Source: Pseudocercospora fijiensis CIRAD86 (lineage: Eukaryota > Ascomycota > Dothideomycetes > Mycosphaerellales > Mycosphaerellaceae). Taken from it: a DNA stretch of 64,000 nt. Position numbers and translations under genes: made by a program. Position 1 is the stretch's first letter; each line of letters begins with the position of its first letter. The notes under the pieces are model-generated. The model did not search any database, was not told where the DNA came from, and worked only from the letters and a program-made list of their open reading frames with translations. Location of the stretch: the NCBI RefSeq assembly GCF_000340215.1, contig NW_006921533.1:311616-375615 (forward strand), given 5' to 3'. This document shows positions 10,664-48,517 of the stretch, piece by piece.

Positions 10664-11932
10664 TGGAGCTTCAAGGTCACATCAACCAGACGTGCGGCTC
10701 CGGCTAACGAGATCATCCCACAACTGCCAATGAACCTGCACAGCTCTGACCATCAAAATGCTACTGCTCACCTCCCAAAAACAAAAGCACAACGACAGAA
10801 CGCTGCAAATGCTCTCGGCAGACAGAGACGGGAGCAGAATGGATGGAGTAGGATGAGTCCTCCGCAGAAGAGAACACTAGGACACCAGAGCAAACTGCGC
10901 GATTTCAGCACGGTGGGGGCGGGTCCAAAAATCTTAAAAGGAGGGAAAACCAGAAGGAGGAAAGAAAGAACTACGCGGGAAAGAAGGAAAGTACTACGCA
11001 CCTCTCGCTCCGTTATTAGCACACGTCGACCAGATGCACGCGACGGACCTCGGTGGCTTGGAAGTCGATCAACTTATAGAAGCGAGTCGACTGCAGGTGA
11101 GGTGAGGTGAGGGAGGCAGGAGAGCCCACCGCTATGAGAAGTGCACGGCTTTCGCTATCCAAAAGTTATGAAAAAGATATCGAGTCACACCCACTTCTAC
11201 TATTAAAAATCTACAGCCATACTATTCGAAGCACATAGCTCTATCTACGAAAAAGATATCAAAAAGTTGTGCAAAAGATATTAAAAAGATACGGCTATAC
11301 TATACGAACTATACGCCTTCTACTATCAAAAAGTTATTAAAAAGTTATTAAAAAGTTATTAAAAAGTTATTAAAAAGTTATTAAAAAGATATAGCTATCC
11401 TGTTCGAACTGTATAGCTCCAACTATCAAAAAGTTCTTAAAAATTTATTAAAAAGATACGGCCATGCTATTCGAACTGCACGCCTTCTACTATTGAATCT
11501 ATTCTACCTGATGTGGCTTGCGTGTATAGAACTGAACTTAAAGTCGCTCGAGATGTTTAGCGTAAGTCGAACGTCCGCAGGTGTCATCGAAGCCCTCAGC
11601 CGTTCTGTCGAGTAGAGAAGAAAGATGGTGCTCACGTAAATCGTCAGCCTTGCTTTGGTCCGTCCTCATTAGCAGTGCTGGGTGAATCTGTCCAAGTATC
11701 ATCGTATCCTGTCCTTCTTCAGTAGAAATGGCCCTCGTTTCTTCCTCCACTGTTGGCACACTGCACGGAAATAGACACGAGGTATCACAGACAAAGGAAA
11801 CGCTTTCGAGATCTACGGTTACAAAGCACTCTCTAATACGATCTTGCTCTCCCTGGCGCTTGTATTCTGTTCTGTACAAGTTCGAGCGCTAGAGAACCCG
11901 ACCGCTCATCTCTCCTCGCATCCCCGAGGCTT
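10664..11932. other. Intergenic region with minisatellite
   Basis: This lies between the ends of the methyltransferase gene (+) and ATP2 (-), which converge. It holds the AT-rich minisatellite at 11157-11490. Frames at 10730-11110 and 11538-11879 show no recognisable domain and were not accepted. Confidence 0.5.
11157..11490. repeat. AT-rich minisatellite with nested 11-bp repeat
   Basis: The 11-bp unit AAAAAGTTATT is repeated five times head to tail at 11328-11382. Around it a longer module recurs about three to four times, built from AAAAAGATA, GCTAT, a CTAT(T)CGAACT-like core and CTACTATCAAAAAG. The copies differ mainly by C/T and G/A changes, and CpA/TpG are scarce, which suggests mild RIP. 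Confidence 0.75.
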
Positions 11933-13198
11933 CTATGACTTTTCGAGATCTGCAAGAATCTTCTTACCCTTCTCCTGTGCCTCCTCGAAGTTGCCGACCA
12001 TGTAGAAAGCACCCTCGGGAAGATCGTCACCCTCACCATCCATAATTCTCTTGAACGATGCAATGGTATCCTTGAGCTCGACAAGCTTGCCCTCAATACC
12101 AGTGAAAACCTGAGCGACAGTGACCCCGACACACTCATACGATAGCGTGTANNNNNNNNNNNNNNNNNNNNNNNNNNNNNNNNNNNNNNNNNNNNNNNNN
12201 NNNNNNNNNNNNNNNNNNNNNNNNNNNNNNNNNNNNNNNNNNNNNNNNNNNTGGTATTGCGATCAGCAGATACCAAGTGGATCGGAGCTCTCCGGCATCC
12301 ACCATGGGCCTTGGCGATGTTGTTCTAGCGACGCGTTAGTGGGCGTCAATAAAGGAAGCAAGTGTTGTACATACAATGAGTTCCTGAATGAACACAGTCT
12401 TGCCGACACCGGCACCTCCGAAGAGACCAATCTTACCACCACGGGCGTATGGGGCGAGCAGATCGACGACCTTGATACCAGTGACGAGCACCTCGGCGCT
12501 GGTGGACTGGTCCACGAATGATGGAGCTTCCTGGTGAATGGGTAGCTTCTTCTCGTGCTTGATGGGTCCACGCTCATCAATTGGGTCACCGGTGACGTTG
12601 ATGATACGGCCAAGAGTACCTGGGCCGACTGGAATCATGATGGGGGATCCCGAGTCGGTAGCGGTTTGTCCACGGACGAGACCCTCAGTTCCGTCCATGG
12701 CAATGCATCGAACGACGTTCTCGCCCAAATGTTGCTGCGACCGCATTAGCGCCGCGGTGCTACAGATATATCGGCATCTCATCTTTTACGTACTGCGACC
12801 TCCAGAACGAGCTTCTGACCGCCATTTGTCGTCTCGAGTGCGTTGAGAATGGGTGGGAGCTGTTCACTGCCGAACTTGACTGGGTGTTGTTAGCGATGGC
12901 GTTCTCGGTGGTTTGCTCGGCAGAGCTTTTCCTGGGCGTGCAGAGGGCGAAGAGGGCGCATACCGTCGACGACGGCACCAATGACCTGGTGGACCTTTCC
13001 GTCCTTGGCCGAGTCGGTGCTGGCGAAGCGCTGGGAGATGGCGGGCGCAAAGGCCTTTGGTTGCCATGCTTTCGATACTGGCTTGCCGAATGGACGGGCG
13101 CTGCGAGCAAACCTGGCGACGCCGCTGCGGAGGGTCAGTGTCGGGGTCCAATGGCTGGCCAAATGCATTTGCCGTGATGGAACTCACTTCTTCAGCAT
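11933..13198 (-). CDS. ATP2: Mitochondrial ATP synthase F1 beta subunit, interrupted by assembly gap
   Basis: Catalytic beta subunit of F1-ATPase in the mitochondrial matrix. Upstream exons are 13198-13188, 13124-12964, 12879-12794, 12734-12375 and one starting at 12324; together they give about 215 residues. They include a presequence ([18 protein letters not shown]), the start of the beta-barrel domain ([14 protein letters not shown]) and the P-loop [15 protein letters not shown], continued by NNIAKAHGG. The C-terminus ([14 protein letters not shown] ... [10 protein letters not shown]) is at about 12118-11933. From family length, some 240 residues in the middle, with most nucleotide-binding residues, fall in the gap. 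The bases flanking the Ns do not encode conserved beta sequence, so this is an incomplete assembly, not evidence for a broken gene. Confidence 0.95.
12152..12251. other. Assembly gap of 100 Ns
   Basis: Exactly 100 Ns, the usual placeholder for a gap of unknown size. Conserved ATP2 coding sequence stops at about 12298 on one side and about 12120 on the other, leaving roughly 30-46 bp on each side unrelated to the gene. Confidence 0.99.
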
Positions 13199-27417: not shown

Positions 27418-28043
27418 TCACGAAGCGTGCCTGGCCCCCTCAGAAGGACTCCCCCCAAAATCATGACCACCAAAATCATGAGGCCTATCCACACCCTTCC
27501 CCTTCTGTCCCGCATACCTCCTACCCTCCTCTTCCCTCTCAGCCTGAACATGCCCCCACGCCCGACTCGAACAAGCACCATAAGTCTCCACCGCCTGCGC
27601 AGCACAATTAGAATACGGCCTCAACCTCACCACCACATCCTCACAATGCCGAAAAATACATTCGTAATGTCCAGGCGCCTCGGCTCGAAATCTCTGCCAC
27701 GTCCCCTCAGTCTTCGCAACCTATGCTTCTCTTACGAGATGGCAGAGATCTGGTCGGTAGAAGATTCGTTTTGCTTCTTCGATCTTCGGGAATGTTAGAG
27801 GAAGATGGGAAAGCAGAAGGGAGATAGATGGGTACGCACTAATTCGATTTCTTGCGCCGACGCTTGGCGAATGCGAAGTTGAAATTCGTAGTTTGGGATT
27901 ACGATTTCTTCCATGTAGCGATCGTAGTATTGTCTCCAGTCGGGGTGATCCATGGGTATGAGTGGGAAAATTAGTTCTACGCCGCGACACCATTGGATTC
28001 CGAGAGCGTGCTAGGGAGTCTCGCAGCGTAGTGGTGTGGACAT
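27418..28043 (-). CDS. Small conserved-looking protein with an in-frame TAG near the start
   Basis: I do not recognise the family. Exons 28043-27840, 27783-27736 and 27693-27418 (introns of 56 and 42 bp) give about 175 residues. Codon 11 is TAG (28013-28011), between ETP and HALGIQW. The frame after it looks coding: WCRGVELIFPLIPMDHPDWR, EAPGHYECIFRHCEDVVVRL and PYSNCAAQAVETYGACSSRA, with several Cys. CAG to TAG is the classic RIP nonsense change, and a RIP island starts about 350 bp upstream. Alternatives are that the TAG is the acceptor of an upstream intron, or that translation starts at MDHPDW. The 42-bp intron is short for a fungus. I rate gene presence as likely and its being intact as uncertain. 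Confidence 0.5.
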
Positions 28044-28384
28044 TTTTGGGGGGTTCAAGTGTTGCGAAGGTGAAGGAGGTTGTTATTCCATGTTCGAGTT
28101 GAGATGAGAGATTGGAGGGGTGACTGTTGGAGAAGGTACGAGTAATGGCTGGGCGGGAAGGAAGTTGGGGAGCATCTGCATTTTTGCGGGAGCTTCAGTG
28201 GGAAAACGAGCTCGTTATGAAAGGGCAGGAAGGCATCGACAGTCGTCGCGAGCACTGCTATCAGTCTAGGAATTCACAACAAGCAGGTCGCTTCAACCAG
28301 ACAAATCAGGGGGGAAACCCCCCCTGTCTGCACCTCGATCGATAGAAATCCAAGCACTTCCTTGAATGCAGCCTTGTTTGTAGT
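28044..28384. other. Short intergenic spacer beside a RIP island
   Basis: Ordinary-composition DNA between the small minus-strand gene and the AT-rich island. It should hold that gene's promoter. No gene is seen. Confidence 0.4.
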
Positions 28385-29215
28385 TTTTTTTTTCTTTTTT
28401 TTTAAGAAAAGTCCTTAAACTCTTTAGGCGCTAACTTTCAAAGATCTAAGAAATTAGATAGTATATGCCCTATAGTAAAACTTAAGACTTTAGGAAGTAT
28501 ATACTTCCTAGTAACGACCGTTTACCGTATAGATCCTTAGTCTTCCTTAGCCTCTTCCTACTCGTTACTAGACTAATAAGATATATAAGGCATTCGCTTT
28601 TTTTAAAAAAGATAGCGACCTTATCGTTACTCTAATTAAATTAAAATATTATATATACCTAATAAAAAACTAAATTTTATTCTATTCTATTTTAGAATCT
28701 TAAGTACTCTACTAATCTCCTACCTTATAACTACCTTTACTTTACTTTAAATATATAAAAACCTATAATATCCCTTTCTATAATCTATATATACTATCTT
28801 GCTACCTAATTTTATTATTAACTTTAAGTAGAGTAGTAAATTTCTCGCTATTTATAAATAGGATTTTCGGATATCTAAGATACTATATAGATAAATAGAT
28901 AGATAGATTTTTAGATCTCTAGAGCCTAGGATCGTAGCGCTAGTATAGAAATATACTATAGAGTTAAGATCTTTAGTAATTATAGTTAGATTGCTTAAAG
29001 ATTTTTAAGGATAGGAAGACGAGATTAAGAGTTAGGGGATCGATTACGTATAGAATCTAGACTAGGGATCGCTTTTAGAAGGATACCTAGGAGCGATATA
29101 TAGGTTCTTTATATACTACACAGTTGCTAACATCCACCTATAGGAGGGGAAGATAGCGAGCCAGCTGCCAGCATTCGTATTTTACCTAGGTCCTAGCTAA
29201 ACAGACATAGCAAGG
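28385..29215. repeat. RIP-degraded AT-rich island
   Basis: Composition changes sharply at about 28385, after a poly-T/A run, to AT-rich DNA nearly devoid of CpA and TpG and full of TpA, while CpG persists. That is the footprint of RIP on a repeated sequence. Stops are frequent in all frames and I cannot identify the original element. Normal composition returns gradually by about 29215. Confidence 0.8.
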
Positions 29216-29805
29216 CTCGATAGAGCAATATTAAGAAATAACGCCAACTCTAACATAGCATACACTTTCGTCGAAGAAGGACGAAAGACTCTCAAAATCC
29301 GCACCGCACCGCACCGCACCGCACTAAAATTTTCTCTTTTCGCATCTACGATTAGGGTATCTGTTCTATCCCCCGTACCTTATTCTACCCAAGGGCCGTC
29401 ACGCATCGCATCGCATCGCATTGTCTCCCTTGGCCCTCCATCAAAACCCTAGGTCTCTAGCACATGAACAGGAATAATCATATCATACAAAATCGTCCTC
29501 CCATATTTATATGAGAAAAAAAAAGTGCAGAAAGAAATGGAAAATCAAAAAAGGCTTGCTTGCTGATCCTCCCGTCCATCCAGTCGTGGCATGGTCATGA
29601 CAACAAAAAACTTTCCGGAGTAAAAGTACACAGGGTGGCGAATGATGCTTAAATACAGACACTAGCGTAGTTGTCGTGAGAATGGGATATCTGGTTTTTC
29701 GGCCGTTTCAATTGCTGGCGCCTATTTGGTGACGCATTAAGATGATGTTGATTGATAATCGAAGGCAAAGGCGTCGCGCAGTCATTACTCTTAGTCTAGA
29801 TGCTG
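29216..29805. other. Intergenic region with pentamer repeats
   Basis: This is the 3' flank of the AT-hook gene. It contains CCGCA-type repeats at about 29299-29323 and CGCAT-type repeats at about 29402-29420. No gene is seen. Confidence 0.5.
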
Positions 29806-33225: not shown

Positions 33226-36176
33226 ATGGCCGACGGCGATGGCAAGCAAGAGAAGCTGGAGTTGGAGGTGCGCGACATGCATCTGAAGGAGGAAGAGACA
33301 GACGTGGACATGGACACCGTGCCTCTGGCGGACTCGGAGTCGCTTTCAGCCAAGAATGAGGCTTCCGCTGCCACCAGTCGCACCGGCACTCCAGCCAGCT
33401 TCAAACGGCAGTCAAAGTCTCCGATCAAGCAACAATCTGCTACAGACTCGCCCGCAATGAAGTCTGAGCAGCAAGAAATCATCGGCGGCGATGTCACCCT
33501 CAAGATGGAGCCCGGCAAGCCTCCGAAGCTTGCTCGGACAACATCGCACAAGGTCGAGAAGCGCCCACCACCGCTCTTCTCAGACTACGAGGACAAGACT
33601 TCTGAATCGAGCACTACCTTTGATGTCCTTCCAGAGTGCATATATGCCAACAAATACTTGGGTAGCACTGAGCATGCGCTCGAGTGCGACTGCGCAGAGG
33701 AGTGGGGTAAGTATTCCTGATTGAACGGGAGAGAAAATAAGTATTGTCTTCATGAATGCTAACAGCGTATTGTGCAGATCCCGCAACGAAGACCAATCAT
33801 GCCTGTGGCGAGGACTCTGACTGCATCAACCGCGCCACCAAAATGGAGTGCGTTGGGGATTGCAACTGTGGCATCGCATGCCAGAACCAACGCTTCCAGC
33901 GAAAACAATACGCAAACGTGTCCGTCATTCAGACCGAGAAGAAAGGCTATGGCCTTCGTGCGAATACCGATCTGCGAGCTAACGACTTCATTTTCGAGTA
34001 TATCGGCGAGGTGATAGGCGAAAATGTGTTTCGACGAAAAATGCAGCAGTACGACGAGCAAGGCATCAAGCACTTCTACTTCATGTCTCTCACCAAAGGC
34101 GAATTTGTGGACGCGACCAAGAAAGGCAACCTCGGACGATTCTGCAACCACTCTTGTAATCCGAACTGCTATGTCGACAAGTGGGTGGTGGGAGATAAGC
34201 TTCGCATGGGTATATTTGCCGAACGCAAGATCAAGGCCGGCGAAGAGCTCGTCTTCAACTACAACGTCGATCGATATGGCGCAGAACCCCAGCCGTGCTA
34301 CTGTGGTGAACCCAACTGCACCGGCTTCATCGGTGGCAAGACACAGACCGAGCGCGCAACGAAATTATCCAATGCTGTCATTGAGGCACTTGGCATTGAT
34401 GATGCCGATGCATGGGACACTGCTGTTGCGAAGAAGCCTCGCAAGAAGAAGGCAGGAGAGGATGACGAAGAATACGTCAACAATGTCGAGCCTAGAGGTC
34501 TCGACGAAGAAGGCGTCAACAAAGTCATGTCTTCTCTCATGCAGTGCAAGGAGAAGTGGATCGCCGTCAAGCTGCTCACTCGAATCCAGCGTGCAGATGA
34601 CGAACGAGTCCGCAACAGGGTCGTCCGCTTCCACGGTTACCGCATCTTGAAGACCGCTTTGTCAAACTTTATCGAGGATGTCAACGTCTGCCTACAGATC
34701 CTCGACGTTCTCGACAAGATGCCTAGGCTCACGCGAAACAAAATCCAGGACTCCAACATCGAAGAGACTGTCTCTTTGCTGGTAGAAAACGAGGATTCCA
34801 GAGTGTCTGCACAAGCCAAAGAGCTCTTGGACAGTTGGTCCAAGCTCGAGGTCGCCTACCGGATACCTCGCGTCAAGCGAGATCCTAACGCAGTTGTACT
34901 GGATCGAAAGGCCGAGCGCATGGATAGGCGTGATGGCGATCGGAGACGAAGCAAATCGCGGTCACGATCAAAGTCTCCCGAACGTATACAAGCGCCGACT
35001 GGGCCACGGAATAGTGCATCACAGCGCGCACCGTTTGCTCGTCCTCCACCACGATTCCGACCTCCGCCGCCGGTTGGACCACTGCCTCCAGGATGGTTTG
35101 AAACGACAGCTGCCAATGGGTCCGTCTACTACTACACACAGGCTGGTACCACAACATGGCAGCGACCCACTATGGCTGCAACTGCCGCACCCCCTCCACC
35201 GCCGCCGAAGACCGTGTCCGACCAACAAATGCTCCAGGATCTAATCAAGAACATTGTAGCATCCAAGAAAGAGCCCACGAAACAGCCATCAGCCACGGCA
35301 ACGCCAGTAGAGACGCCCAAGAAAGAGAAGAAGCAGGAGAAATGGCGATCCTTACCGGAGGAAAAGCAGAGGAGATTATACGAAAGCGCGCTTCAACCAC
35401 ACATTATGCATGTTGTTGGAAAGTACAAGCACAAACTCGCAAAAGAGGATCTGAAACGTTGGGCGAAGGAATTTGCAAAGCAGATGGTCGACTCGGACTT
35501 CAGGAAAAATCGCGTTGATGATCCAAATAAGGTCAGCGACAAAAGGGCCAAGGATGTGAAGAAGCATGCACAAGTGTTCTTTGAGAAGGCCCTCAAGAAA
35601 AAAGAGGCAGCTGAGGTGAAGAAGGCGGAACGAAGAGCGGGAAAGGAGAATGAAGGCAACACATCAGCGGGCTCTCCCCAGCCTGCTCCTGGCAGTCCGC
35701 TATTAGACGAGGCATTGTCTGACCACGACATGGACGATGCCGATGTGGACGGCACTCCTATCGACTCCGAGAGAAAGCGAAGACGTGAAGAAACGGCCTT
35801 GGATGATGAGGATCTATCTGCCAAGAAACAACGAACAGAGTCTGTAGAACCTGCAGCTCCGCCGCCACCACCTCCTCCACCTCCAGCAGAAGACAACTTC
35901 GACAGCGAGCAAGCCACACCACGCACGAATGACGACGATTTTGCGAATGACACCCCTAGCGCTGACTTGGAACTGGGATTCTCCATCAAGGGCGCAGCCA
36001 AAGGGCATAGTCGGCCCGCTTCTCAGAACGGCGACCGGTCCCACTTAGCAACACCCCCGACAACAGGCTCACCGGACCACGATGAAGCCGAGAAAGCACT
36101 GAAACGCTCGAATTTCGCCGGTATGAACCCGGATAGGATGCGGCATCTGGGGCTCATGGATGGTGCCAGTCGATAG
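33226..36176 (+). CDS. SET2: Histone H3 lysine-36 methyltransferase Set2
   Basis: Set2 methylates H3K36 co-transcriptionally while bound to the phosphorylated RNA polymerase II tail. Exons 33226-33706 and 33778-36176 (71-bp intron, GTAAGT...GTGCAG) give 959 residues. Order: disordered N-terminus; AWS Cys cluster at about 150-195 (CDCAEEW, CGEDSDC, CVGDCNCGIACQNQRFQ). The SET domain at about 200-325 has GYGLRA, FIFEYIGEVI, NLGRFCNHSCNPNC and EELVFNYNVDRYG. Post-SET is CYCGEPNC. A WW domain lies at about 590-625 (LPPGWFETTAANGSVYYYTQ), and the SRI domain at about 680-770 (LYESALQPHIMHVVGKYKHK). The catalytic Tyr and the NHSCNPNC motif are intact. I chose MADGDGKQ at 33226 because it has an ACCATGG context; a Met 28 codons upstream is possible. 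Confidence 0.97.
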
Positions 36177-36980: not shown

Positions 36981-37355
36981 AATGTGGGGATGGTAGTTTG
37001 TGAATTTTTTTTGTCGTTGTGATTGTTGTTGTTGTACTGAATGACTGTCCGACCGACCGGTAGAGGATGTTTTTTTTTTGTTTTTGGACGAGAAGATTTG
37101 GGTTCGGATTGGATGGTGAAGGTGACTTTTTTCGAGAACCGCTTTTGTTGATGGAGATGGGGAATGTGTATCGTTGCTTCACACGTTGGAAAGTTGAGGA
37201 GTTGATCTACCTCCTCTCAGGCGCTCCGAGTGTTGTAGATTCTTCCACGTGATTCTGTATCCTTAGGCATCGACACTAACCACATTAGGTATAGAGAAAG
37301 CTATAGCGGAGCGCCTGAAGTCAAACCGGGCTACCTCTATACACCTAATTATTGT

Positions 37356-37724
37356 TCAATTTACGAAGATTAAATACAGCGTCGCAACTACGCAAAATAG
37401 CGGTTTATATCCGCGGGCGTAGTTATGCGTTTTGATATAATCTGTCAGATTGCCTATACAAAGTAGTCGCGAAAATGTTAATAGAAGGATTAATTCTTAG
37501 TCTTCTAAGACGAGGCGATTATTGTTCCCGTTTGCTATCTACCCTACCTAGTGTTACTTACCTACAAACGGCATATATAGCGCTAAACAAAGCACATACG
37601 GTCCGTCGCATTAACTACCTCTCTAATCTCCGTACTTTAGAATGCCTAAAAAGTGTTGCTATTGCCTCTATCTCGCTGTCTAGGGCTACGCGCTACACTC
37701 TTTGCTATTTCTTTCTACTATTAT
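37356..37724 (-). pseudogene. ORF-A of the element: short decayed frame, unknown
   Basis: Reading TAG/TAA as former Gln or Trp, this gives about 122 residues ending in a true TGA (37358-37356). The probable start codon is now ATA (37724-37722 or 37721-37719), consistent with ATG to ATA. The middle reads like protein (LGILKYGD, CDGPYVLCLALYMPFVGK, NNNRLVLED). It is divergent from the helicase frame with about 145 bp between. No family is recognised. A TFSRL....NL stretch also occurs near the N-terminus of the DUF6589-like frame. Confidence 0.45.
37384..37426. repeat. Imperfect hairpin near the left end of the element
   Basis: Arms AACTACGC (37386-37393) and GCGTAGTT (37417-37424) are perfect inverted repeats, with an inner GCGG/CCGC pair, so the segment could fold into a two-part stem-loop. 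It lies inside ORF-A. Confidence 0.5.
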
Positions 37725-37748
37725 AGCGACTATAACTGTCTAGCGCTC

Positions 37749-37782
37749 GCATATATATATATACATATACGCGCGCGCGCGC
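37749..37782. promoter_or_regulatory. Alternating purine-pyrimidine tract between divergent element ORFs
   Basis: An uninterrupted alternating purine-pyrimidine run of about 34 bp: an AT/CA part followed by a CG part. Such tracts can adopt Z-DNA. It lies in the space between ORF-A and the helicase frame, where a divergent promoter would be expected. Confidence 0.55.
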
Positions 37783-37869
37783 TAGCTGCTTCGTATATGT
37801 TCTAAGTTCGACCTTGCTATCGCTACTTCCGCTACCGCTACCGCCCCGCCGTATCTATCGCCGATAACA

Positions 37870-40800
37870 ATGCCTCTACTATAGTCTAATATAAGCGAGA
37901 AGCAGCGCCGCGCCTAGGTAAAGAAAGAGAAGAAAGTAGCTTCGAAGAAAGCAGCTTCGAAGAAAGACAACTAGCCTATCGGACCTAAGCTACTAGGTCG
38001 CGCTGCCGTTAGTCGAGAATCGCTAGACTTTAGCTATTTGCTACTAGTCGAGTAGCTAGCTAGAAAGAGTAAATATAAAGCCTAGTTCTAGTAGCGCTAC
38101 GATAAGATCTTCGATCCTACGATATTACTTAAGCAAGTATAGCAATTAGTCTACGATGCGATACGTACCCTAGAAGCTATTAATATATATCGCGATATCG
38201 TTACCTAAGGACTGCGAAAGGTTCTCGACAAGATGCATCTAGGCAAGGGCTATATACTAAAGGAATCCTAGATCTATAGTGTCTAGGCTCTCGTATTTGC
38301 CTGCTCTAATATAATAATAATAGCGAAGACTAGCGAAGGCAAGAGTTTGCCTTTTTAGGCCTTTGGCCTATTAACAGGTATAGTAGTTATTAAGATTACA
38401 CTATTAAATCGTCTCGGTAAGGAGTATATAGAGGATATACGCGAGACTGCTCGACAAGCTAACTACCTAATTAATGTAGTTAATATTACCGTAGAGAATA
38501 AGAGCATAGATCGTAACCTGTTTTAGAAGATTATAGATAGCAAGGTCTACTATATTATCCTTAGTCTAGAAACTGTAGCTAGCGAGGACTTCCGAGCTAT
38601 TATTCGAGACCTAAAGGCCTAGGCTCGAATTGGTTTAGTTGTAATCGACGAGATGTACCTAGTAGCGAAGTAGAAGGAATTTCGCAAGGAATATACCTAG
38701 ATCTTCTCTCTACGGAAGCTGCTACGCACCGACACGGTATAGTTAGGCTGTTCTACTACTAGTAAGTAGATCGAGCTAAGCTAAGCTAAACTGAACTAAA
38801 CTAAGCTAAGCTAACTATCGCTAGTGTCTAAGGAAACAGAGGAATTTATAGCCAAGAATAGTAGCTTCCGACCTCTTAGAAATAAACCGTATAAGACTAA
38901 GGTTCTCCGTAGCAGTATTAATCGACTAGATACTATATACATCCTGCGCACTATTAATAAGGACGAGCTTAGCTGCTACGACTACTTATACTTCGTAGTT
39001 AATAATAGCGTCGGTCTAGAAAAGGAGGCGACACCTTAGGGCATTAAGAAGGCTCTACTATTTATTAATAGTCGGAAGTCGGTCTAAGAGCTCGCTAATA
39101 CTATTCGTAGCTAGCTCATTGCCGCGACTACTAAATACACCGATCCGAAGAAGCGATATACCTAGGACAACAAGGGCGTTAATGTATATACTACTGTCTT
39201 ATTCTATACTAGTAGTATAGCTAAGCGCGACTAGACCCGTCGATACAAGCAATATAGCCGTACTATAGATAGCCCCGATAGTCTATCGAACATTCGTATT
39301 ATAATCGCGACGACTGCGTTTAGCGTCGGTCTAAATATTCTAGATATCGAGATTGTCGCCTAGGTTAAGTATCCGATTACTCGAGACATTAAGGATCTAA
39401 TATAGCGGCTTAGTCGTATTAGTCGTGCCCTTCTATAGTAGGGCAAGCGAAGTATAGCCTTAGTCTTCTTGCTATACCTAGTTGATAATAGCAAGAAGTA
39501 GCCTCGCCCGGACTCTTATTACTCGGCGATTCGAGTTAACACTCGAAAATCCTAATAGCATCGCTATACGCTAGGCCGTTCCTTAGGTCTATTACAATTA
39601 TAGATCCCCGAAGAAGATGCTAAGGGAGACGGCGATGCGAGTGCTGCTAGCGATATAGATATAGATACAGATGCCGGCACAGATCCGCAGTATTAGACTA
39701 AAGCAGAGATAGCTGCCCGCGAGAAGATTCCAAAGATCTAGATACATTTCTAGAACGATCGATATCGAGACTATAGTATCTGCCCTCGCAAGGTAATCCT
39801 CTAGTACCTTAGCGAGGATAAGGTAATATATCTATAAGACCTACTATCGAGCGAGCACTGCTATAATGCCTATAACCCTAACCTAGATCTCCTTTACAAT
39901 AGCAGGCTACTAGTAGAAGCTATAGGTCCGATCTTCCGCAAGCTAGGAAATAGGATACGTCCGGCTATTGCCTTCTAGAAGCTATAGGCGTAGTTGTCTT
40001 CTAAGAATAACAAGTACCCGGAATAGACTTATCGTTGCATATTTAACCTCCCGTTAAAGACTATTCTAGAAGACCGAAGACTCTAGAGTATATATAATAT
40101 ATTTACTACTACTAGCTAGTTCGAGCAATAGGAGAATATAGTCGTTAATTAGCGGCTACTTAAGCAGAAATCGGTAGAGTTTATCGACTAGTTTAAAGCT
40201 CTAAATATCGACTAGCGCCTATTTGCGTTATATAAGCTAATTAATAAGATTAAGCGGATTGGTACGAGTGTCTTTACTAAGTAGAAGGCTAGTCTTAACG
40301 CGAAAGCTAAGAAGCGCGTAGACAAATAACAAGCTATCGCTACTACTGCTTCTGCCGCTGCTAGACTAACATCTAGTTCTCAATCCGCGGCCGGCCGATT
40401 ATTGCTAAATCCTCCGATAGTATCTCTAGCGTAGCGCCTTGCTATATAGAACGCCGCGCGAAATGCCGTCTAGGCCGGTATTATAGAGTCCTTACGCAGC
40501 GAGGCAGCGAGAATAGGTCTTCGTATAAATCAGATCGAGAGAGCGACTGCTACTACTTCCGGTCCTAGTGCCGGCCCTCGCCTACCTAGTCGCATAGTTA
40601 AGCTAAGGGTAGTACTTCTAGGCAATCTAGCCTCCGCATTTCTACCCGCTTCTGCCGTTGCTACTAGCACTACTCGTAGTCTAGACGATCCGCGTAATAA
40701 GCGTCCTGCCTCTACAAGCCTAGTAACAAGCTAGGTACCTCGATATAGAGCGCGCCGGATTAATTAAGTTAAATCGGAGCGAGCTAAGAGAGCCGAGCAG

Positions 40801-40944
40801 TTATTAAGTACAGTTACTCGTACTACTAAGGAGAGAGGTAGCCGTAAGCTACGTAGGAACCGTACGCTATTAGAAGCTAGTCTCCGTCTTATAGGCTAGT
40901 TACTAGGTAGCTCGCCGACAGGATTACTAAGCCGTCGCCGCTAA
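37870..40944 (+). pseudogene. RecQ-like DExH helicase, RIP-inactivated
   Basis: One frame stays in register for 1,025 codons; every stop before the terminal TAA is TAG or TAA where CAG, CAA or TGG is expected. Helicase landmarks appear in order. A Walker A-like TSEGKSLPF at about 38329 follows a Q-motif-like segment. The DExH box is now DEMY (His CAC to TAC) in a LVAKWKEF..EY context, as in RecQ DEAHCVSQWGHDFRP. Motif III is GCSTTS near 38742. ALLFINSRKSV opens domain 2, then IIIATTAFSVGLNI. Motif VI has become RLSRISR, explained by TGG to TAG-type G-to-S changes. A long helical C-terminus follows. I count more than 20 internal stops between 38221 and 39760, so it cannot be functional. Similar helicases occur as telomere-linked or repeated genes in fungi. 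Confidence 0.8.
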
Positions 40945-40976
40945 CTCTGCCTAGTTGAGCTACTTCTGCGAGAGCT

Positions 40977-41165
40977 AGCGGTGAAATAGCGCTAGAATTG
41001 GCGGTGAAATAGCACTAGAATTAGCGGTAAAATAGCACTAGAATTGGCGCTAGAATTGGCGCTAGAAATGGCACTAGAAATAGCACTAGAATTGGCGCTA
41101 GAATTGGCACTAGAATTGGCGCTGGAAATGGTACTAGAATTAGCGCTAGGATAGCAGTAGAGTTA
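40977..41165. repeat. About 12-bp tandem repeat (GCGCTAGAATTG-like)
   Basis: About fifteen degenerate head-to-tail copies of a unit close to GCGCTAGAATTG, varying by G/A and C/T. It begins just after the end of the helicase frame. Confidence 0.8.
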
Positions 41166-41324
41166 GCATTTGATAAGGTCCTTCCTTACTACCCTTCTAT
41201 TATATCCTTATAAGCTCGCTAAGTCCTTGTCCTATCCCCGGAAAAGTGAGCCGTAATACCACGCTCGATCGCAGGTTGTATACTATGCTATCTTCTAGAT
41301 TAGATATCGGTAGCAGCATTAAGC

Positions 41325-41660
41325 TGCTTCTGCGAGAGCTAGCGTGTAATGCCTAGTTTAGCTGCTTCTACGAGAGCTAGCGTATAGTGGAGCTAGCGTA
41401 TAGTGGAGCTAGCGTATAGTGCCTAGTTTAGCTGCTTCTACGAGAACTGGCATATAATATAGGATGCCTAGTTAAGCTGCTCCTACGAGAGCCGGCGTAT
41501 AATATAGGATGCCTAGTTAAGCTGCTCCTACGAGAGCTAGCGTATAATGCCTAGTTAAGTTGCTTCTACGAGAGCTAGCGTATAATAAACCAGCTATAGC
41601 CTATACTGGAATTAGTACTAGCGCTAGAATTGGCGCTGGAATTAGCATTTAATAAGGTCC
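41325..41660. repeat. About 35-45-bp tandem repeats (GCTTCTACGAGAGCTAGCG family)
   Basis: At least six copies of a unit containing GCTGCTTCTACGAGAGCTAG, followed by a TATAATGCCTAGTTAA-like stretch. The unit also occurs once near 40960, next to the helicase end. The GCGCTAGAATTGGC unit returns near 41610-41640. Confidence 0.75.
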
Positions 41661-41782
41661 TTCCTTATGTCCTTATAAGCTCGCTAAGCAGGCTCTTCTA
41701 TTATGTCCTTGTAAGCTCGCTAAGTAGGCTCTTCTATCGTGTCCTTGTAAGCTCGCTAAGCAGGCTTTTCTATTGTGTTCTT
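41645..41782. repeat. Tandem repeat with GTCCTTGTAAGCTCGCTAAG
   Basis: Four copies of a unit of about 40-45 bp containing TCCTTGTAAGCTCGCTAAGCAGG, with C/T variation. A related single copy lies at about 41200-41230. Confidence 0.75.
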
Positions 41783-42119
41783 TGCGACGAGGGTTTATAG
41801 ATAGTCGTAGGTGTCGATAGTATATAAGAGCTAGAGGCGAGAAGCGTGAATTCGAGGAAGCGACAAGGATGCCGAGTCCCGCTAAGACCCCGGATTTAGT
41901 ATAGTAGAGCGCTTGATTAGTGGGATTAAACGTTATAGCTGCTTCCTTCCGCGCATTTACAACACCGACTTTACGACTTTTACGACTTTTATAATAGTAT
42001 ATTACTAATGTAGCGAGATACGCCGATTGCGCGCATTTCTAGCAAATAGCGCTAACAAAAGTGTCTAACACGATAACGACGGCCGCCTTAGGCACTAAGA
42101 ACCGCCTCCGAAACCCGAG

Positions 42120-42690
42120 AAGTTACTAGCGAGAAGTTACTAGCGAGAAGTTACTAGCTAGACTAGCGAGACTAGTACTATACTTATTGCACCGCATACT
42201 CTTATAGACACTATAATATATACGGCAAGGATAGATACGTAGGGCGATAACATATATCGAGCGCTCGTAAAAGCACCCTTCGAGAAGCTACGATAGCCCT
42301 CTTACGTTAACGCCCTCTATTGCTTAGACTCTCCCTAGAACGATTATTCCGATAACTAGTTACTATATAAGGTAGAGAAAACGAATAGTAGCGTCCGGGG
42401 ATCTAATTAACTAGCGGCACTAAGCGGCTGCAGAAGTATACACTCCGAAGCACACTAGAATTACATATAGCCTATATGCTACGCGCAATACGTAACAATT
42501 AACGCATTCTATTACTAACTATAGTACGCGAGGTATGTAGGAAGGGACTTATTAAGCGAAACAACAATAGCTCATTCGCTAAAGCGATACTTATTAGTAC
42601 CTAGACAACAATAGAGTATAGCCGCGCCCTTAGTATTAGAGATACCGCAGAAAAGGGTTATCGAGCGCGTTGCAGTCGTATAGCAATGTT
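42120..42690 (+). pseudogene. ORF-C of the element: possible decayed frame
   Basis: Reading TAG/TAA as Gln or Trp gives about 150-190 residues without another interruption until a TGA near 42690. The translation is compositionally protein-like (NIYRALVKAPFEKLR, YVNALYCLDSP, LVLEIP.KRVIERVAV). No family is recognised and there is no clear start. It lies in the repeat-rich core between the two large genes. Confidence 0.3.
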
Positions 42691-42815
42691 GATGCGCTTG
42701 CTAGAAGAGGCGCACTGCAGTCGGATAACAGTCTTAATACGCTTGCTAGAAGAGGAGGCGCACTGCAGTCGAATAGCAGTCTTAATACGCAAAGGGCTGC
42801 AGTCGTATAGCAGCA
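42655..42815. repeat. Tandem repeat with GCAGTCGTATAGCAG unit
   Basis: About four copies of CTGCAGTCGTATAGCAGT-like sequence, linked by CTTAATACGCTTGCTAGAAGAGG-type spacers. Confidence 0.7.
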
Positions 42816-43582
42816 GTGAAGACTAAGCGCCTTCGGGCTTAAGTATACTAGAGGCCCTTACGCAACGACTAAGGTTATTATAACTAACAGTCCTAACGAA
42901 GGCGTTACGCCGACTTAACTAGATACGCGTATATTATCCTATAAAGAATCCGAACGTAGGAAGCCTATAGCCGCTACTTAAGGTATACCTTACTAAAGAG
43001 TTTTTACCGAGTTAGACCTATAGCAATGCTACGAACCTATTAACCCACTCTGTCTATTAACCTACTTAGTCTATTAACCTACTTAGTAGGAGAGTCGCTA
43101 TCGAGCCGCTACTTAAGGTATATCTTACTAAAGAGTTTTTACCGAGTCAGACCGTTAGCCGCATTATAGGTGTACCTTACTAAAGAGTTTTTACCTCCGC
43201 TAATCTACCCGAGACCCGCAGTTTGTTGCACTAAGACAAGACTGCGATGTTCTAACAAAAACTATGCTCTTTCGGTTAAATACGTAGTCGACGCCCGCTA
43301 AAGCTATAGAAAACAACCTACTCGCTAGGAGAGTCGCCTTCGCAACGTCTTACTCGGCAAAGCCTATCGGAGACCTTAAAAAAAGGACTAAACAAACCAC
43401 CTGCCGAGGAACCTCAACTATTAGACAAGCGGCTCTATCGGTAGCAAGCCGCAGAACTAGCAAGGAATAGTGTTAATCGCTATAGAGCTACCTATATACG
43501 ATAAGGAGGTATCGACACTGTTATATACGCCGATAGCTAGTATGTTGCTAGGGGTGTTGGTATATTAGTATGTTAGTGTATA

Positions 43583-43585
43583 TAG

Positions 43586-43615
<30 letters not shown>
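43583..43615. repeat. GAA microsatellite
   Basis: Uninterrupted GAA trinucleotides, about ten copies, inside the core of the element. Confidence 0.9.
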
Positions 43616-43616
<1 letters not shown>

Positions 43617-44029
43617 TGAACTAGGAAGCGTAGGTCTATATTAGCGCATCGCAGGTAAGGTTTGCCTCTACTAATAGGATTGCGCTATTTAGCTATAATA
43701 GTAAGGCAACAATAACGGCTATACATTATCGCACTTTTAACGCAATAGCCGCCGACTACTGCTAGTCGAATGCCTAAGGCTAGAATTACTAGCAGTTATC
43801 GAAATTACCGGAGGCCTCCTTTAGTATTAGGCGCTCTAAATTCATATAGGAACCAAGTCTACAGCGAAGCCAATAGCAGAGACCTCTACTCTAACTAAGA
43901 CTCCGACTGCCCCTAGTTAGAGTAACGCTAGTTGTCAAGCCATTATCGTACGCCTAGCCTAGCCTAGCTAGCTATTAAGCTATTATTATACGCCTAGCCA
44001 AACCCTTCGACTTTATAAGCACTACGACG

Positions 44030-44165
44030 AGGTACGCACTCTAGTTTACTAGGCACGCACTCTAGTTTACTAGGCACGCACTCTAGTTTACTAGGCACGC
44101 ACTCTAGTTTACTAGGCACGCACTCTAGTTTACCGCTACTACTTCGCCACTAGGCACGCACTCTA
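44030..44165. repeat. About 22-bp tandem repeat (GCACGCACTCTAGTTTACTAG)
   Basis: Six to seven copies of a unit close to GCACGCACTCTAGTTTACTA, nearly identical, which is unusual given how degenerate the rest of the element is. Confidence 0.85.
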
Positions 44166-44174
44166 GTCTACGGA

Positions 44175-44425
44175 GCTATTAGCTATTAAGCCATTATCGT
44201 ACGCCTAGCCTAGCTAGCTATTAAGCTATTATCGTACGCCTAGCCTAGCCAGCTATTAAGCAATCATCGTACGCCTAGCCTAGCTAGCTATTAAGCAATT
44301 ATCGTACGCCTAGCCTAGCTAGCTATTAAGCCATTATCGTACGCCTAGCCTAGCTAGCTATTAAGCAATTATCGTACGCCTAGCCTAGCTAGCTATTAAG
44401 CAATTATCGTACGCCTAGCACTAGA
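44175..44425. repeat. About 36-bp tandem repeat (ATTATCGTACGCCTAGCC)
   Basis: About eight copies of a unit joining AGCTATTAAGC, ATTATCGTACGCCTAGCC and TAGCT. Two further copies lie upstream at about 43935-44005, before the 22-bp array. Confidence 0.85.
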
Positions 44426-44597
44426 AGATGAAGCACTAGAAGATAAAGCACTAGAAGCTAACAGCCTATATTAATTGGCACAGCAAGGAACGGTAGCTAA
44501 GCGATAGATATAGTAGGTTGGATTTCTATATACCGAATATATTATCCTCTTAGTTAAGCTCGTTAAGATAGGTGGTTGTTTGCGGCTCTTATGCCTC

Positions 44598-47500
44598 TTA
44601 TATCCCCTTATCTCCTTGCTCCTCTCCTAACTACCTAGTACGACGGTCGACGGCACTAGCCTACGTAGAGTTACTACTATCGACGGTAGAATCCTCGATA
44701 GCGCTAAGGTCGCTAGTAGCTATCCGCTTAGCAATAGCAGTAGCCTCTATCTCCTCGTCTATCGATATAGTACTACGACCCTAACAGTACTACGCATTAC
44801 CCTCGTTAAAGTCGGCTACCTTCTCTAAGATCTATATACCTCCGAGCTGCTAGATATTATTAGAGACGTTGCCGCTAGGGTTTCCGTATAGCTTTGTATA
44901 CCTATTAGAGTACAACTTCTCGGCTCTGCTAAATACGTCGATAGATGTATCCTTATAGGTATAATAGCTGCTTAGCTTAATCCTAGTTAGATTAGTTATT
45001 ATAGTACGCAAGACCCTAGACGGCTCCCGATTCAAGGCTACCTTCTTGAATGTAGCCTGCATATTATAGGTCGAATTAGCGTGTCGGTTAATGTCCTCGG
45101 AATACTCGTAATTATAGAGCTCGAGACACTTATTAGCTACGACGGCATGTCCCTTATTGCCGTTTATAGAGACTACACTCGACGTTAGGATTGCTTTTTA
45201 AGCTACTAGATTAGTACTAGGACCAAGCAACTAGCGTAGGTAGGTTATCAGACGGCTATAGTTGCCTTAACGAGCACTAAAGAATAAGGGGATTAGGAAG
45301 TCGACTAATCTACGAAGATAGCCGATGTCTATATTCCGAATAGACTTACGTAACGTAAGGAATTGCTCGATCTCCTTTAGTATTCGAGCTATAGTCGTAA
45401 ACTGCGGATCTGTACCCGGTTAGCCGCGCTAGGCAGCTAGAGATAACGTATCGTTATATATCTTGTTAACAAGATAGATATACTAATTACGAGTAAGTCG
45501 AGAGATAGCGGCCTCTACCATTTCTATACGACTATCCTCGCTAGCGATAATCACTCGGCCTTTATCGATGAGCTACTAAATAACGAGACCGATAATGCGA
45601 GATCGGAAGCTCGTCTTTAATAGCTACTAAACCTCGAAGAACTTGGCCTTGTCCTTACTAATCTTATTGTCTCTATACTAAAAGGCAGTATCAGCCTTCA
45701 ACGTCTAGGATACTAGTAATAGCTCCCTATCTCTATTGTTGTCCTAATAGGTCCGCAACAATGTAAGGCCGCAGTTTATTATAGTATAGAACTAGGCAGG
45801 AGAGAACAAGAGATTGTCTCGCTTGTCGTACGTATCCTCACTCTCGACACTCTTATTACGGACAGATAGGCCGCGTAGAACAGTTATCTAGTCGCTATTG
45901 CAGATAATTAGCGGTCTATTAGGTCTATTCTTGAAGTCCTTATCTTAATCTAGGTCTATAAAGTTGAGAAGGATATCGTCCTAGACTGCGTATATACCTA
46001 TAATCGTAGCCTCGTCGTTAAAGGATAGTAGTATAGAAAGCACCTTAGTCTAGGTAGCCGGTATCTTATCGATAACTAGCTACTTCGGACGACTAATAGT
46101 ATTACTATTATCGTTATCGTCGTTACTAGCCTCTGCCGCCTCCTTCTTAAATACAGCTTTAACGGCCTTCGGGAAAGTGTATGCGATAGCCTCGTTAATA
46201 TAGAATAGGGCGGTCTTCTTACTAATCTTAGTAATCTCAACTATCTCGGTACTAGTAGTTAGATTAGCTACATCCTTTAGAACCTGTGCCTAGGCCTTGT
46301 CTTCGTATATGTTCTTAAAGATATTATCTAGATCGAGAGGCTTATCGTAATAGATTATACCCTTCTTTAAACCGCCCTCTAGGATGCTCTTATTCTCTAC
46401 AAGGTACGATATAGTAATACTTAATATTTCGTTAGTCTCGCTACCGCGCTAGATAGTATAGGTCTTTATACGATTGAAGTTGTCGATAGTCTTACTATAC
46501 TGCTTATTAGGATCGTTCGCCAGCTCGCTAATCTTCTATATCTAGACCTCTATATTCTTGCTTATAAGAATCCGTACGGTGCGATACGAAGGAACAAGCC
46601 CTAGGTTGCTAAGACACTCGAGTATTCGCCGGCTAGCACTATTGCTAACTAGAAAGATGCTAAGCGCCTTCGGGAAATACGAGGCGTTTACGTATACTAT
46701 CGAAAACAGGACCTACGAGGTAATTATTATAATCCGCTTCTAGATCTGGTTGTACTTGTCGATAAAGGTCTCCTAGTATTGCTTTTAATCTCGCCGTAGG
46801 TTAGGCAACAGTTCCTCGCTAAGAAGTCGATACTAGGTTAGTGCGATCTCTTTAATAGTAGTGCTTATACTACTAAGGTTAAACTTAGCATAACTAAAGT
46901 CTAGATTATATATACTAAAGTGGTCTCGGCTAATAAGGCTCTTTAGTTCTTTACGGACAATACGACCGCTAAATAGACGCTCTTCTAGAAAGACGTCTAG
47001 AAGCGACTAGAGATTTCTCTCGTACTGCTTTAAGCGCTTAGTCGACCGATAAGGCTATAACTAGCCGTCTTCTACTATAGATTTTGCTATACCTAGCTTG
47101 CCGACTAGATACTTAATAAGATATAGCATAGAGATACGGCTCTTCTTTATTAAGGCTTTAATCTCCTCGCACCGCTTATTAAGGGTTGTCCTAGTCTATT
47201 CGTTAGTCGCTACTCGGCGCTGTTCTATAGCAGCCTCTTCGTCTAATTCCTCTTTACTACTATCGCGAGCCTCGAGGTCCTCTTTATCGTTAGACATCTC
47301 CTCGTCGTCCTCGCTAAGGTCTTTATCTATAGATACCTTATCCTAAAAGTTACTAATCTTATCTATCCCGGCTAGTCTAACTAATTTATCTAGAGGGTTA
47401 GAGAGAATGCCGCCGCTGCTTAGATAGATTAGTAGATCGGTCTGTGCGCCTATAAGAACAGTCTGTTCCTTAGGTCCTCTAGGTAAAGCAGTATCGTCGT

Positions 47501-48238
47501 CGTCTAGGCTAGTTATATTCTTATTATAGTTATAGGCGACAGTACTACCGACTAGGTTATTATTAGATAGTAGAACCGAGGTTAAGGAGGATAGATCGTC
47601 GCTCGACATATTAGCAGCGGTAGCAGCTATAGTAGCAGCTATAGTAGCAGCGGTAGTAGTAGCGGTAGTAGTAGCGGTAGTAGTAGCAGTGCTAGTAGCG
47701 ACTTTTAGGTGTTTTAAGCTTAGCTTTAGAGTCGCGTCTACTATATAGCAGCAACTTAATAACCACACCTCGGGTAGACTTATGCTATATACAAAAGGTG
47801 TTTAGAAATAGTCTACGAAGGACCTCGAAGTATCGAGTCGGCTATAGGAAGGTTGTCGATTGCCTTCGAAGGCTATAAAGCGGTTAGTAGGCGTCGGACG
47901 GAATTTTCGCCTACTTAAATAATAATAGCCGGGATTAGGAGAAGGACCTCTAAGTGTTAGCTAGGCGATGCGGTGTATTTTATATTAAGGTGTTTCTAGC
48001 AGTGCAGCTAGCCGCCTAGCAATCTAGATAGCTACAGTCGAGTCGGCTTAGTAGAATAGCGAAAACTTAACGCGCTAACGTCGTACAGACTTTTTTAGTA
48101 GGTAGAATAAAGCGCAATTGGCAGGGCTACAATCTCCGCTATTCAGATTGTTGTATTTGTATAGTCGCGAAAAAGTGGTATATCGCAGGCTAGTTTAGCA
48201 CGGCTTGTTCTCAGGCTTGTAGGCGAAGAATTATTAGG
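44598..48238 (-). pseudogene. Large DUF6589-like protein, RIP-inactivated
   Basis: One frame runs in register for about 1,200 codons. All interruptions I translated are TAG or TAA at expected Gln or Trp positions (about a dozen between 46441 and 47345). The N-terminal part includes PCQTSLRYTTFSRL, CALFYLLKKSVRR and PSYSRLDTSRSF. An Ala/Thr repeat and an acidic stretch follow, then LGLVPSYRTVRILI, KTALFYINEAIAY and the block NRPLIICNSDQITVLRGLSV. Towards the end come RDRELLLVSQTLKADTAFQY and NSTYNMQATFKKVA. From memory, the ...LGLSVSY.TV, ...DQLTV.R and ...N...K patterns are those of the fungal DUF6589 family, whose function is unknown. No helicase or polymerase motif is seen. The N-terminus is uncertain because RIP fades there, and the C-terminus may extend past 44598. 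Confidence 0.55.
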
Positions 48239-48305
48239 TGTGTTTGTAATTGGCTGGTCGGAAGGTTCGGAAGCTAGCCCTAATTACTAATCTATCTATC
48301 ACGTG

Positions 48306-48517
48306 CACTCGGTCGCAGTTTGATTCTTCATGCCCACAAGCCTGATGGGAGGTAGGAGTTGATGGGAACGAGGCGAGGATGCACAAATGCCAAGCTCAAG
48401 GCTAGCAAAGTTTAATAGTGGTACAGATATGGACGCCTATGTCCTTCTCGACTCTCTATAGCAGTCGAGATGCATTGATCGCAATTATGCCACCCTTTCG
48501 AAGATCCACGAGATCGC
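48306..48517. other. Junction between element and PCF11 3' flank
   Basis: Composition returns to host-like here. It is the 3' flank of PCF11, so the element lies close to the gene's terminator. A few bases of element may extend into it. Confidence 0.4.

What the first reader, a model, noticed from the sequence alone, without database searches (positions are those of the whole stretch)
37246..48305. An 11-kb RIP-silenced composite element pairing a RecQ-like helicase with a DUF6589-like giant protein
Seen: one compositional block with two very long frames on opposite strands, pointing inward, a repeat-rich core and a small divergent frame at the left. Known: RecQ-like helicases occur as repeated or telomere-linked genes in fungi, and RIP acts only on duplicated DNA. 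Inference: the unit was a multi-copy mobile element carrying its own helicase and a partner of unknown function. I know of no named fungal transposon class with this pair and no recognised transposase, so it may be undescribed.
Basis: partly seen in the sequence, partly recalled or inferred. Interest (0 to 1): 0.88.

Follow-up and report, generated by a model that had tools for sequence, protein, structure and literature searches.

The report
Dead fungal transposon with a helicase
This 11-kb block is a mutated, inactive copy of a family of large fungal jumping genes that carries a DNA-unwinding enzyme beside a protein of unknown function, which is probably the enzyme that moves it.

Summary
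The block is one RIP-inactivated DNA transposon, window 37207-48355 (11,149 bp). It runs CTACCTCC...GGAGGTAG with a 16-bp imperfect terminal inverted repeat (TIR) and is flanked by an 8-bp target duplication, GAGTTGAT. Of 30 end pairs read, 29 resolved: 24 show an exact 8-bp duplication, 1 matches 7/8, 1 is an exact 9-bp one, 3 show none. Joined flanks of one short member match uninterrupted copies of another repeat (empty sites). Inside are two convergent genes, a RecQ-like helicase and a PF20231 (DUF6589) protein; both show third-codon-position bias between diverged copies, so both were kept as proteins. DUF6589 scores 102 times in the host genome, each time with stops; the exact TIR pattern occurs 199 times, its reversed control 0. 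Families whose genes differ by 15-17% in transversions share a core differing by about 1%, so they seem to exchange modules. Host: almost certainly Pseudocercospora fijiensis. That DUF6589 is the transposase is inferred by elimination, not shown. Helicase-carrying DNA transposons (KolobokH, AcademH) are known; the 8-bp duplication argues against Kolobok; AcademH membership could not be tested.

The parts
37207..48355 (.). whole element, RIP-inactivated TIR DNA transposon, 11,149 bp
   Evidence: consistent ends in other copies, TIR and duplication, RIP indices
37199..37206 (.). left copy of the 8-bp target duplication GAGTTGAT
48356..48363 (.). right copy of the 8-bp target duplication GAGTTGAT
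37207..37222 (+). left terminal inverted repeat (16 bp, 2 mismatches to the right one)
48340..48355 (-). right terminal inverted repeat
37600..41007 (+). RecQ-like helicase frame (start not determined); RecQ match 38296-38760, weak Helicase_C match 39247-39429
   Evidence: codon-position bias 38300-39600
44400..47609 (-). DUF6589 gene frame (exact start and end not determined), likely transposase
   Evidence: PF20231; codon-position bias 44900-47100
45024..46088 (-). stretch matching PF20231 DUF6589 (profile 55-388 of 410)
40983..44461 (.). intergenic core with many tandem arrays; 41.7-44.0 kb nearly free of transversions against a diverged copy
47649..48324 (.). right subterminal block shared at about 87% identity with diverged families

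Best explanation
It is a dead copy of a large DNA transposon with terminal inverted repeats. Shown: ends CTACCTCC...GGAGGTAG, insertion with an 8-bp target duplication, two convergent genes that were both kept as proteins, many copies in several families with short gene-less members, and inactivation by RIP. Inferred: the DUF6589 protein is the transposase and acts on the ends shared by full-length and short members; the RecQ-like helicase is an accessory, perhaps for unwinding the ends, repairing the gap or copying the element during replication. Inferred: families recombine with one another, so that core and right end stay similar while gene segments differ.
For: Ends and duplications: 24 of 29 resolved pairs exact at 8 bp. 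Empty sites for one short member in 40 of 40 scored places. Exact TIR pattern 199 against 0. Genes; transversions by codon position 1/2/3 98/706, 70/705, 200/705 in DUF6589 and 58/404, 41/405, 104/404 in the helicase. Linkage: 27 of 35 window-like helicase places and 12 of 15 RecQ-profile places have a DUF6589 within 40 kb, nearest convergent in 25 and 10, about 0.14 expected per place. Short members with the same ends and duplications carry no room for either gene. RIP. Mosaic.
Against: No catalytic residues or fold of DUF6589 were shown. No intact copy was seen (102 of 102 with stops). No relative outside this genome was found. Only 16 of 39 DUF6589 places on the contigs whose ends were listed have an exact-pattern end within 15 kb, 2 have both, so many are fragments, have degraded ends or belong to families with other ends. 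3 of 29 pairs have no duplication and one has 9 bp. 8 of 35 and 3 of 15 helicase places had no listed DUF6589 within 40 kb, and 2 and 2 had a nearest one that is not convergent.
Confidence: 0.75

Rival explanations
1. It is an AcademH element, the already described helicase-carrying lineage of Academ transposons, with DUF6589 being the Academ transposase under a Pfam name. This is compatible with the mechanism above and would make the element a known kind.
For: A citing paper says AcademH encodes helicases and occurs at low copy in Basidiomycota, Ascomycota and Mucoromycota (PMC10799480, passages). The element here has a helicase.
Against: None decisive. From memory, Academ target duplications are not 8 bp (3-4 bp, or 9-10 bp in one lineage); I could not check this, as the source paper is not held. 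Here 24 of 29 pairs have 8 bp.
Confidence: 0.35
2. The element is moved in trans by a hAT transposase of the host genome, and DUF6589 and the helicase are passengers.
For: 8-bp duplications are typical of hAT, and this host carries a hAT family with 8-bp duplications and an un-RIPed hAT transposase frame (PMC6710886, passages and section 6).
Against: The Pfam scan of the two frames showed no hAT domain. Both genes were selected as proteins and stay paired across diverged families. The TIR of the published hAT is in a figure that I could not see, so the ends were not compared.
Confidence: 0.12
3. The two genes belong to two separate elements, one nested in or next to the other.
For: Nested insertions are common: several copies span 16-40 kb or more between the same ends, and one copy has its DUF6589 gene interrupted by several kb.
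Against: One TIR pair and one duplication enclose both genes, and the convergent order recurs in diverged copies.
Confidence: 0.02

Closest known systems
KolobokH (Kolobok superfamily; PMC9587614, passages)
   Same: A fungal DNA transposon with a RecQ helicase; one Kolobok family of a red alga even has the helicase on the complementary strand. An element of about 10,470 bp called KolobokH in Cladobotryum has two RecQ-like genes and an uncharacterised gene (PMC10989895, passage).
   Different: Kolobok duplicates TTAA (recalled); here the duplication is 8 bp with no preference. KolobokH has the helicase downstream of the transposase; here the genes converge. The Cladobotryum elements adjoin telomeric repeats; many copies here lie far inside contigs.
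AcademH (Kojima 2020, not held; seen only in citing papers)
   Same: Helicase-carrying DNA transposons of fungi and animals.
   Different: Transposase relationship not tested; duplication length of AcademH recalled only.
Histone-H3-carrying hAT of P. fijiensis (PMC6710886, passages and section 6)
   Same: Same host, RIP-damaged, many copies, 8-bp duplication, about 9.5 kb.
   Different: It has DUF659 and H3-like sequences and a 20-bp TIR; the element here has DUF6589 and a RecQ-like helicase and a 16-bp TIR, and no hAT domain was seen.
Telomere-linked RecQ-like helicase repeats (PMC4522978 and PMC3017866, passages)
   Same: Repeated, RIP-affected or AT-rich RecQ-like genes in Dothideomycetes.
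   Different: Described there as subtelomeric; here they lie within TIR-bounded elements and pair with DUF6589.

Membership tests
TIR DNA transposon (class II) | terminal inverted repeats | tested here: met
   16-bp TIR, 199 exact pattern hits against 0
TIR DNA transposon (class II) | target duplication of fixed length and empty sites | tested here: met
   24 of 29 pairs exact 8 bp; empty sites tested for one insertion
TIR DNA transposon (class II) | DDE/D transposase | not tested
   DUF6589 fold not predicted (step referred); profile searches against solved structures gave nothing meaningful
Kolobok / KolobokH | TTAA target duplication (recalled) | tested here: not met
   8-bp duplications without preference
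Kolobok / KolobokH | RecQ helicase | tested here: met
   TIGR00614 E 5.1e-8, below curated cut-off
AcademH | helicase gene | tested here: met
AcademH | Academ-type transposase | not testable with these tools
   no Academ profile at hand; source paper not held
hAT | 8-bp target duplication | tested here: met
hAT | hAT transposase domains (DUF659, hAT dimerisation) | tested here: inconclusive
   not among Pfam matches of the two X-read frames at E up to 1; RIP damage could hide a weak match
Starship | DUF3435 tyrosine recombinase | tested here: inconclusive
   not among Pfam matches of the two frames scanned; other frames were not scanned
Helitron | no target duplication, no TIR; Rep/HUH protein | tested here: not met
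   TIR and 8-bp duplication present; no Helitron domain in the two frames scanned

The most novel reading that the evidence does not exclude
DUF6589 proteins are the transposases of an undescribed superfamily of eukaryotic DNA transposons (8-bp duplication, CTACCTCC ends) in which a RecQ-like helicase is a constant partner, and whose families evolve by swapping gene modules around a shared non-coding core.
Probability: 0.35. Interest if true: 0.78.

Novelty: new variant of a known kind. Interest (0 to 1): 0.6.

Why it matters
It gives a Pfam family of unknown function a likely function (transposase), with ends, target duplications and empty sites on which this can be tested. It adds a case of helicase-carrying TIR transposons, where the role of the helicase is open. 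The mosaic families suggest that large fungal transposons exchange modules by recombination, which would mislead classification from any single part.

Tried and rejected
Protein relatives: two searches with the DUF6589 frame and with an alignment of ten copies found nothing at E 1e-3 and 1e-2, each scoring only the roughly 7,990 candidates sharing most words. The same database returned 2243 proteins for the flanking Set2-like gene, named fungal ones among those listed, best 94% identical and from Pseudocercospora eumusae, so the blank reflects shared words lost to RIP at least as much as absence. Scans of viral contigs and genome contigs with four aligned stop-free pieces: 94 and 145 pattern matches, none a relative; neither collection is fungal. 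Solved structures: best E 0.34, not meaningful; none. 5.8S rRNA for host identity: none found. Literature: DUF6589 in 0 held papers, four TIR strings in 0, PF20231 in 4 papers unrelated by title (listing only).

Rejected: frame length as evidence; a small left gene; two nested elements; Kolobok (duplication); Helitron. Not excluded: AcademH, movement in trans by hAT.
Full report
What is there. The block at 37-48 kb differs in composition from its surroundings and carries a strong RIP signature. Copies of the same family differ from it almost only by transitions: in the closest loci, L002 and L003, transversion rates are 0.000 in the DUF6589 gene and 0.002 in the core. So the family spread recently and was then mutated by RIP.

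Ends. Matches to the left end start at window 37207 in most copies (query 108), and matches to the right end stop at 48355 or 48356 in the near copies; diverged copies stop some 30-40 bp earlier. The termini are CTACCTCC...GGAGGTAG, with a 16-bp inverted repeat that has two mismatches here. I fetched the ends of 28 further pairs and six single ends and one whole diverged copy. Of 30 pairs, 29 resolved (C2:4732 has no left end). Of these, 24 have an exact 8-bp duplication, C2:4600 has 7 of 8, C2:1311811 has an exact 9-bp one, and C6:4349, C6:3720 and C4:2873 have none. The ends fetched for C6:3720 were approximate, so it may not be a true pair. No target preference is apparent.

Short members and empty sites. 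The exact pattern CTACCTCCNNTYAGGC occurs 199 times and its reversed control 0 times. Only the first 100 places were listed; among them ten inward pairs lie under 1 kb apart. Seven were fetched: six have exact 8-bp duplications, one 9 bp. For one further short member, 823 bp at C9:1367353-1368175, the flanks joined with one copy of the duplication match across the junction in all 40 scored places (107 candidates) at 93-96% identity, missing at most 4 bases at the left and 1 at the right edge. It therefore inserted into one copy of another high-copy repeat. Only this insertion was tested.

Genes. With stops read as X, the + frame matches RecQ (TIGR00614, E 5.1e-8, below its curated cut-off) and weakly Helicase_C, and the - frame matches PF20231 DUF6589 over cut-off (E 3.1e-22). 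A diverged complete copy, C4:5517k, 11,334 bp, has the same ends with a perfect 16-bp TIR and an exact duplication. Between it and the window, transversions fall on codon positions 1/2/3 at 98/706, 70/705 and 200/705 in the DUF6589 gene and at 58/404, 41/405 and 104/404 in the helicase; in the core they show no such pattern, 12/753, 4/754 and 12/748 by phase. Both proteins were therefore under selection before RIP.

Linkage. From the 71 matches I kept one piece for each of 35 places. From the 31 matches I kept 15 with several stops; I dropped the stop-free ones and C6:3577066, which has one stop and adjoins an apparent host gene. Three loci are in both lists. Against 133 DUF6589 places (31, 102, with some overlap), 27 of 35 and 12 of 15 have a DUF6589 within 40 kb, and the nearest is convergent in 25 and 10; about 0.14 is expected for a random place. 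One of the eight without a partner, C4:1520940, lies in an 18-kb TIR-bounded copy with an exact duplication that holds DUF6589 pieces split by several kb. So some misses are limits of the search.

Copy number. PF20231 scored over its cut-off 102 times of 177 candidates, each time with TAG or TAA inside, and in none of 14 control genomes, all prokaryotes. No intact copy was seen; the search scores only the best candidates. On C1-C3 and part of C4, 16 of 39 of these places have an exact-pattern end facing them within 15 kb (random mean 1.5, maximum 7 in 500 placements); 2 have both ends.

Mosaic. Between the window and C4:5517k the transversion rate is 0.149 in a helicase piece, 0.172 in the DUF6589 gene, 0.014 in the core and 0.044 in the right subterminal block, with abrupt changes near 41.7, 44.0 and 47.7 kb. 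L005 and L008, whose DUF6589 relatives are 39% and 37% identical over the stretch compared, have cores differing by 0.016 and 0.026. The reverse also occurs: L004 and L007 match the window in the DUF6589 gene (0.000) but differ in the core (0.022, 0.034). In L017, L018 and L020 four of five windows of the DUF6589 domain differ by 0.8%, while 46.7-47.2 kb differs by about 15% (no value for L018 at 46.95 kb). In L101 the helicase changes from 0-0.5% to 10.5% within 800 bp. Exchange between families explains these patches best. Selection on the core alone would not explain patches inside genes or the reverse cases. The core and its flanking stretches were matched in 38 scored places of 290 candidates.

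Host. The genome has 73.9 Mb in 30 contigs, the largest 11.88 Mb. A histone profile scored 150 places of 772 candidates, 148 of them with stops, the best and stop-free one on contig C6. This matches published P. fijiensis: 74 Mb, largest scaffold 11.8 Mb (PMC4981457, passages), 784 RIP-damaged H3-like copies carried by a hAT, original copy on scaffold 6 (PMC6710886, passages and section 6). The gene left of the element is 94% identical to a P. eumusae protein. The identification is strong but inferred.

Mechanism. Shown: ends, duplications, empty sites for one insertion, short members, two selected genes, RIP. Inferred: DUF6589 is the transposase, since in the complete copies examined the only other recognised gene is the helicase and short members share the ends. 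The part played by the helicase is conjecture from the existence of KolobokH and AcademH. A serious alternative is movement in trans by the host's hAT transposase, which also makes 8-bp duplications.

Comparison. KolobokH is nearest by helicase type (PMC9587614, passages), but its TTAA duplication (recalled) does not fit. AcademH is helicase-carrying and reported from Ascomycota (PMC10799480, passages); its source paper is not held, so membership is open and weighs on novelty. The P. fijiensis papers seen (PMC4981457, PMC13041039, PMC6710886, PMC4981473; passages) contain no word beginning with 'helicase' in the main text. DUF6589 is in no held paper. Many relevant papers and Repbase are outside the library, so 'undescribed' is not established.

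Noticed in passing
G000:C1:6597812-6599921: Seven TIR-pattern ends in the same orientation at exactly 349-bp spacing: a tandem array of an end-bearing unit.
   Followed up: no
window 28001-29000: GC 0.36 and RIP-like indices (TA/AT 1.42), with no frame of 100 aa or more overlapping 27800-29500: perhaps another degraded repeat.
   Followed up: partly
window 11001-12000: Mildly RIP-like indices (TA/AT 1.17).
   Followed up: no
window 33756-36176: A Set2-type histone H3K36 methyltransferase frame without stops ends about 1 kb left of the insertion, so the element lies beside a host gene.
   Followed up: partly
G000, many contigs: Histone-H3-like sequences with stops, 148 of 150 scored of 772 candidates, as published for P. 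fijiensis.
   Followed up: partly
window 40983-44461: The core holds many different tandem arrays with periods of 12 to 48 bp; their role (binding sites, recombination) is unknown.
   Followed up: no
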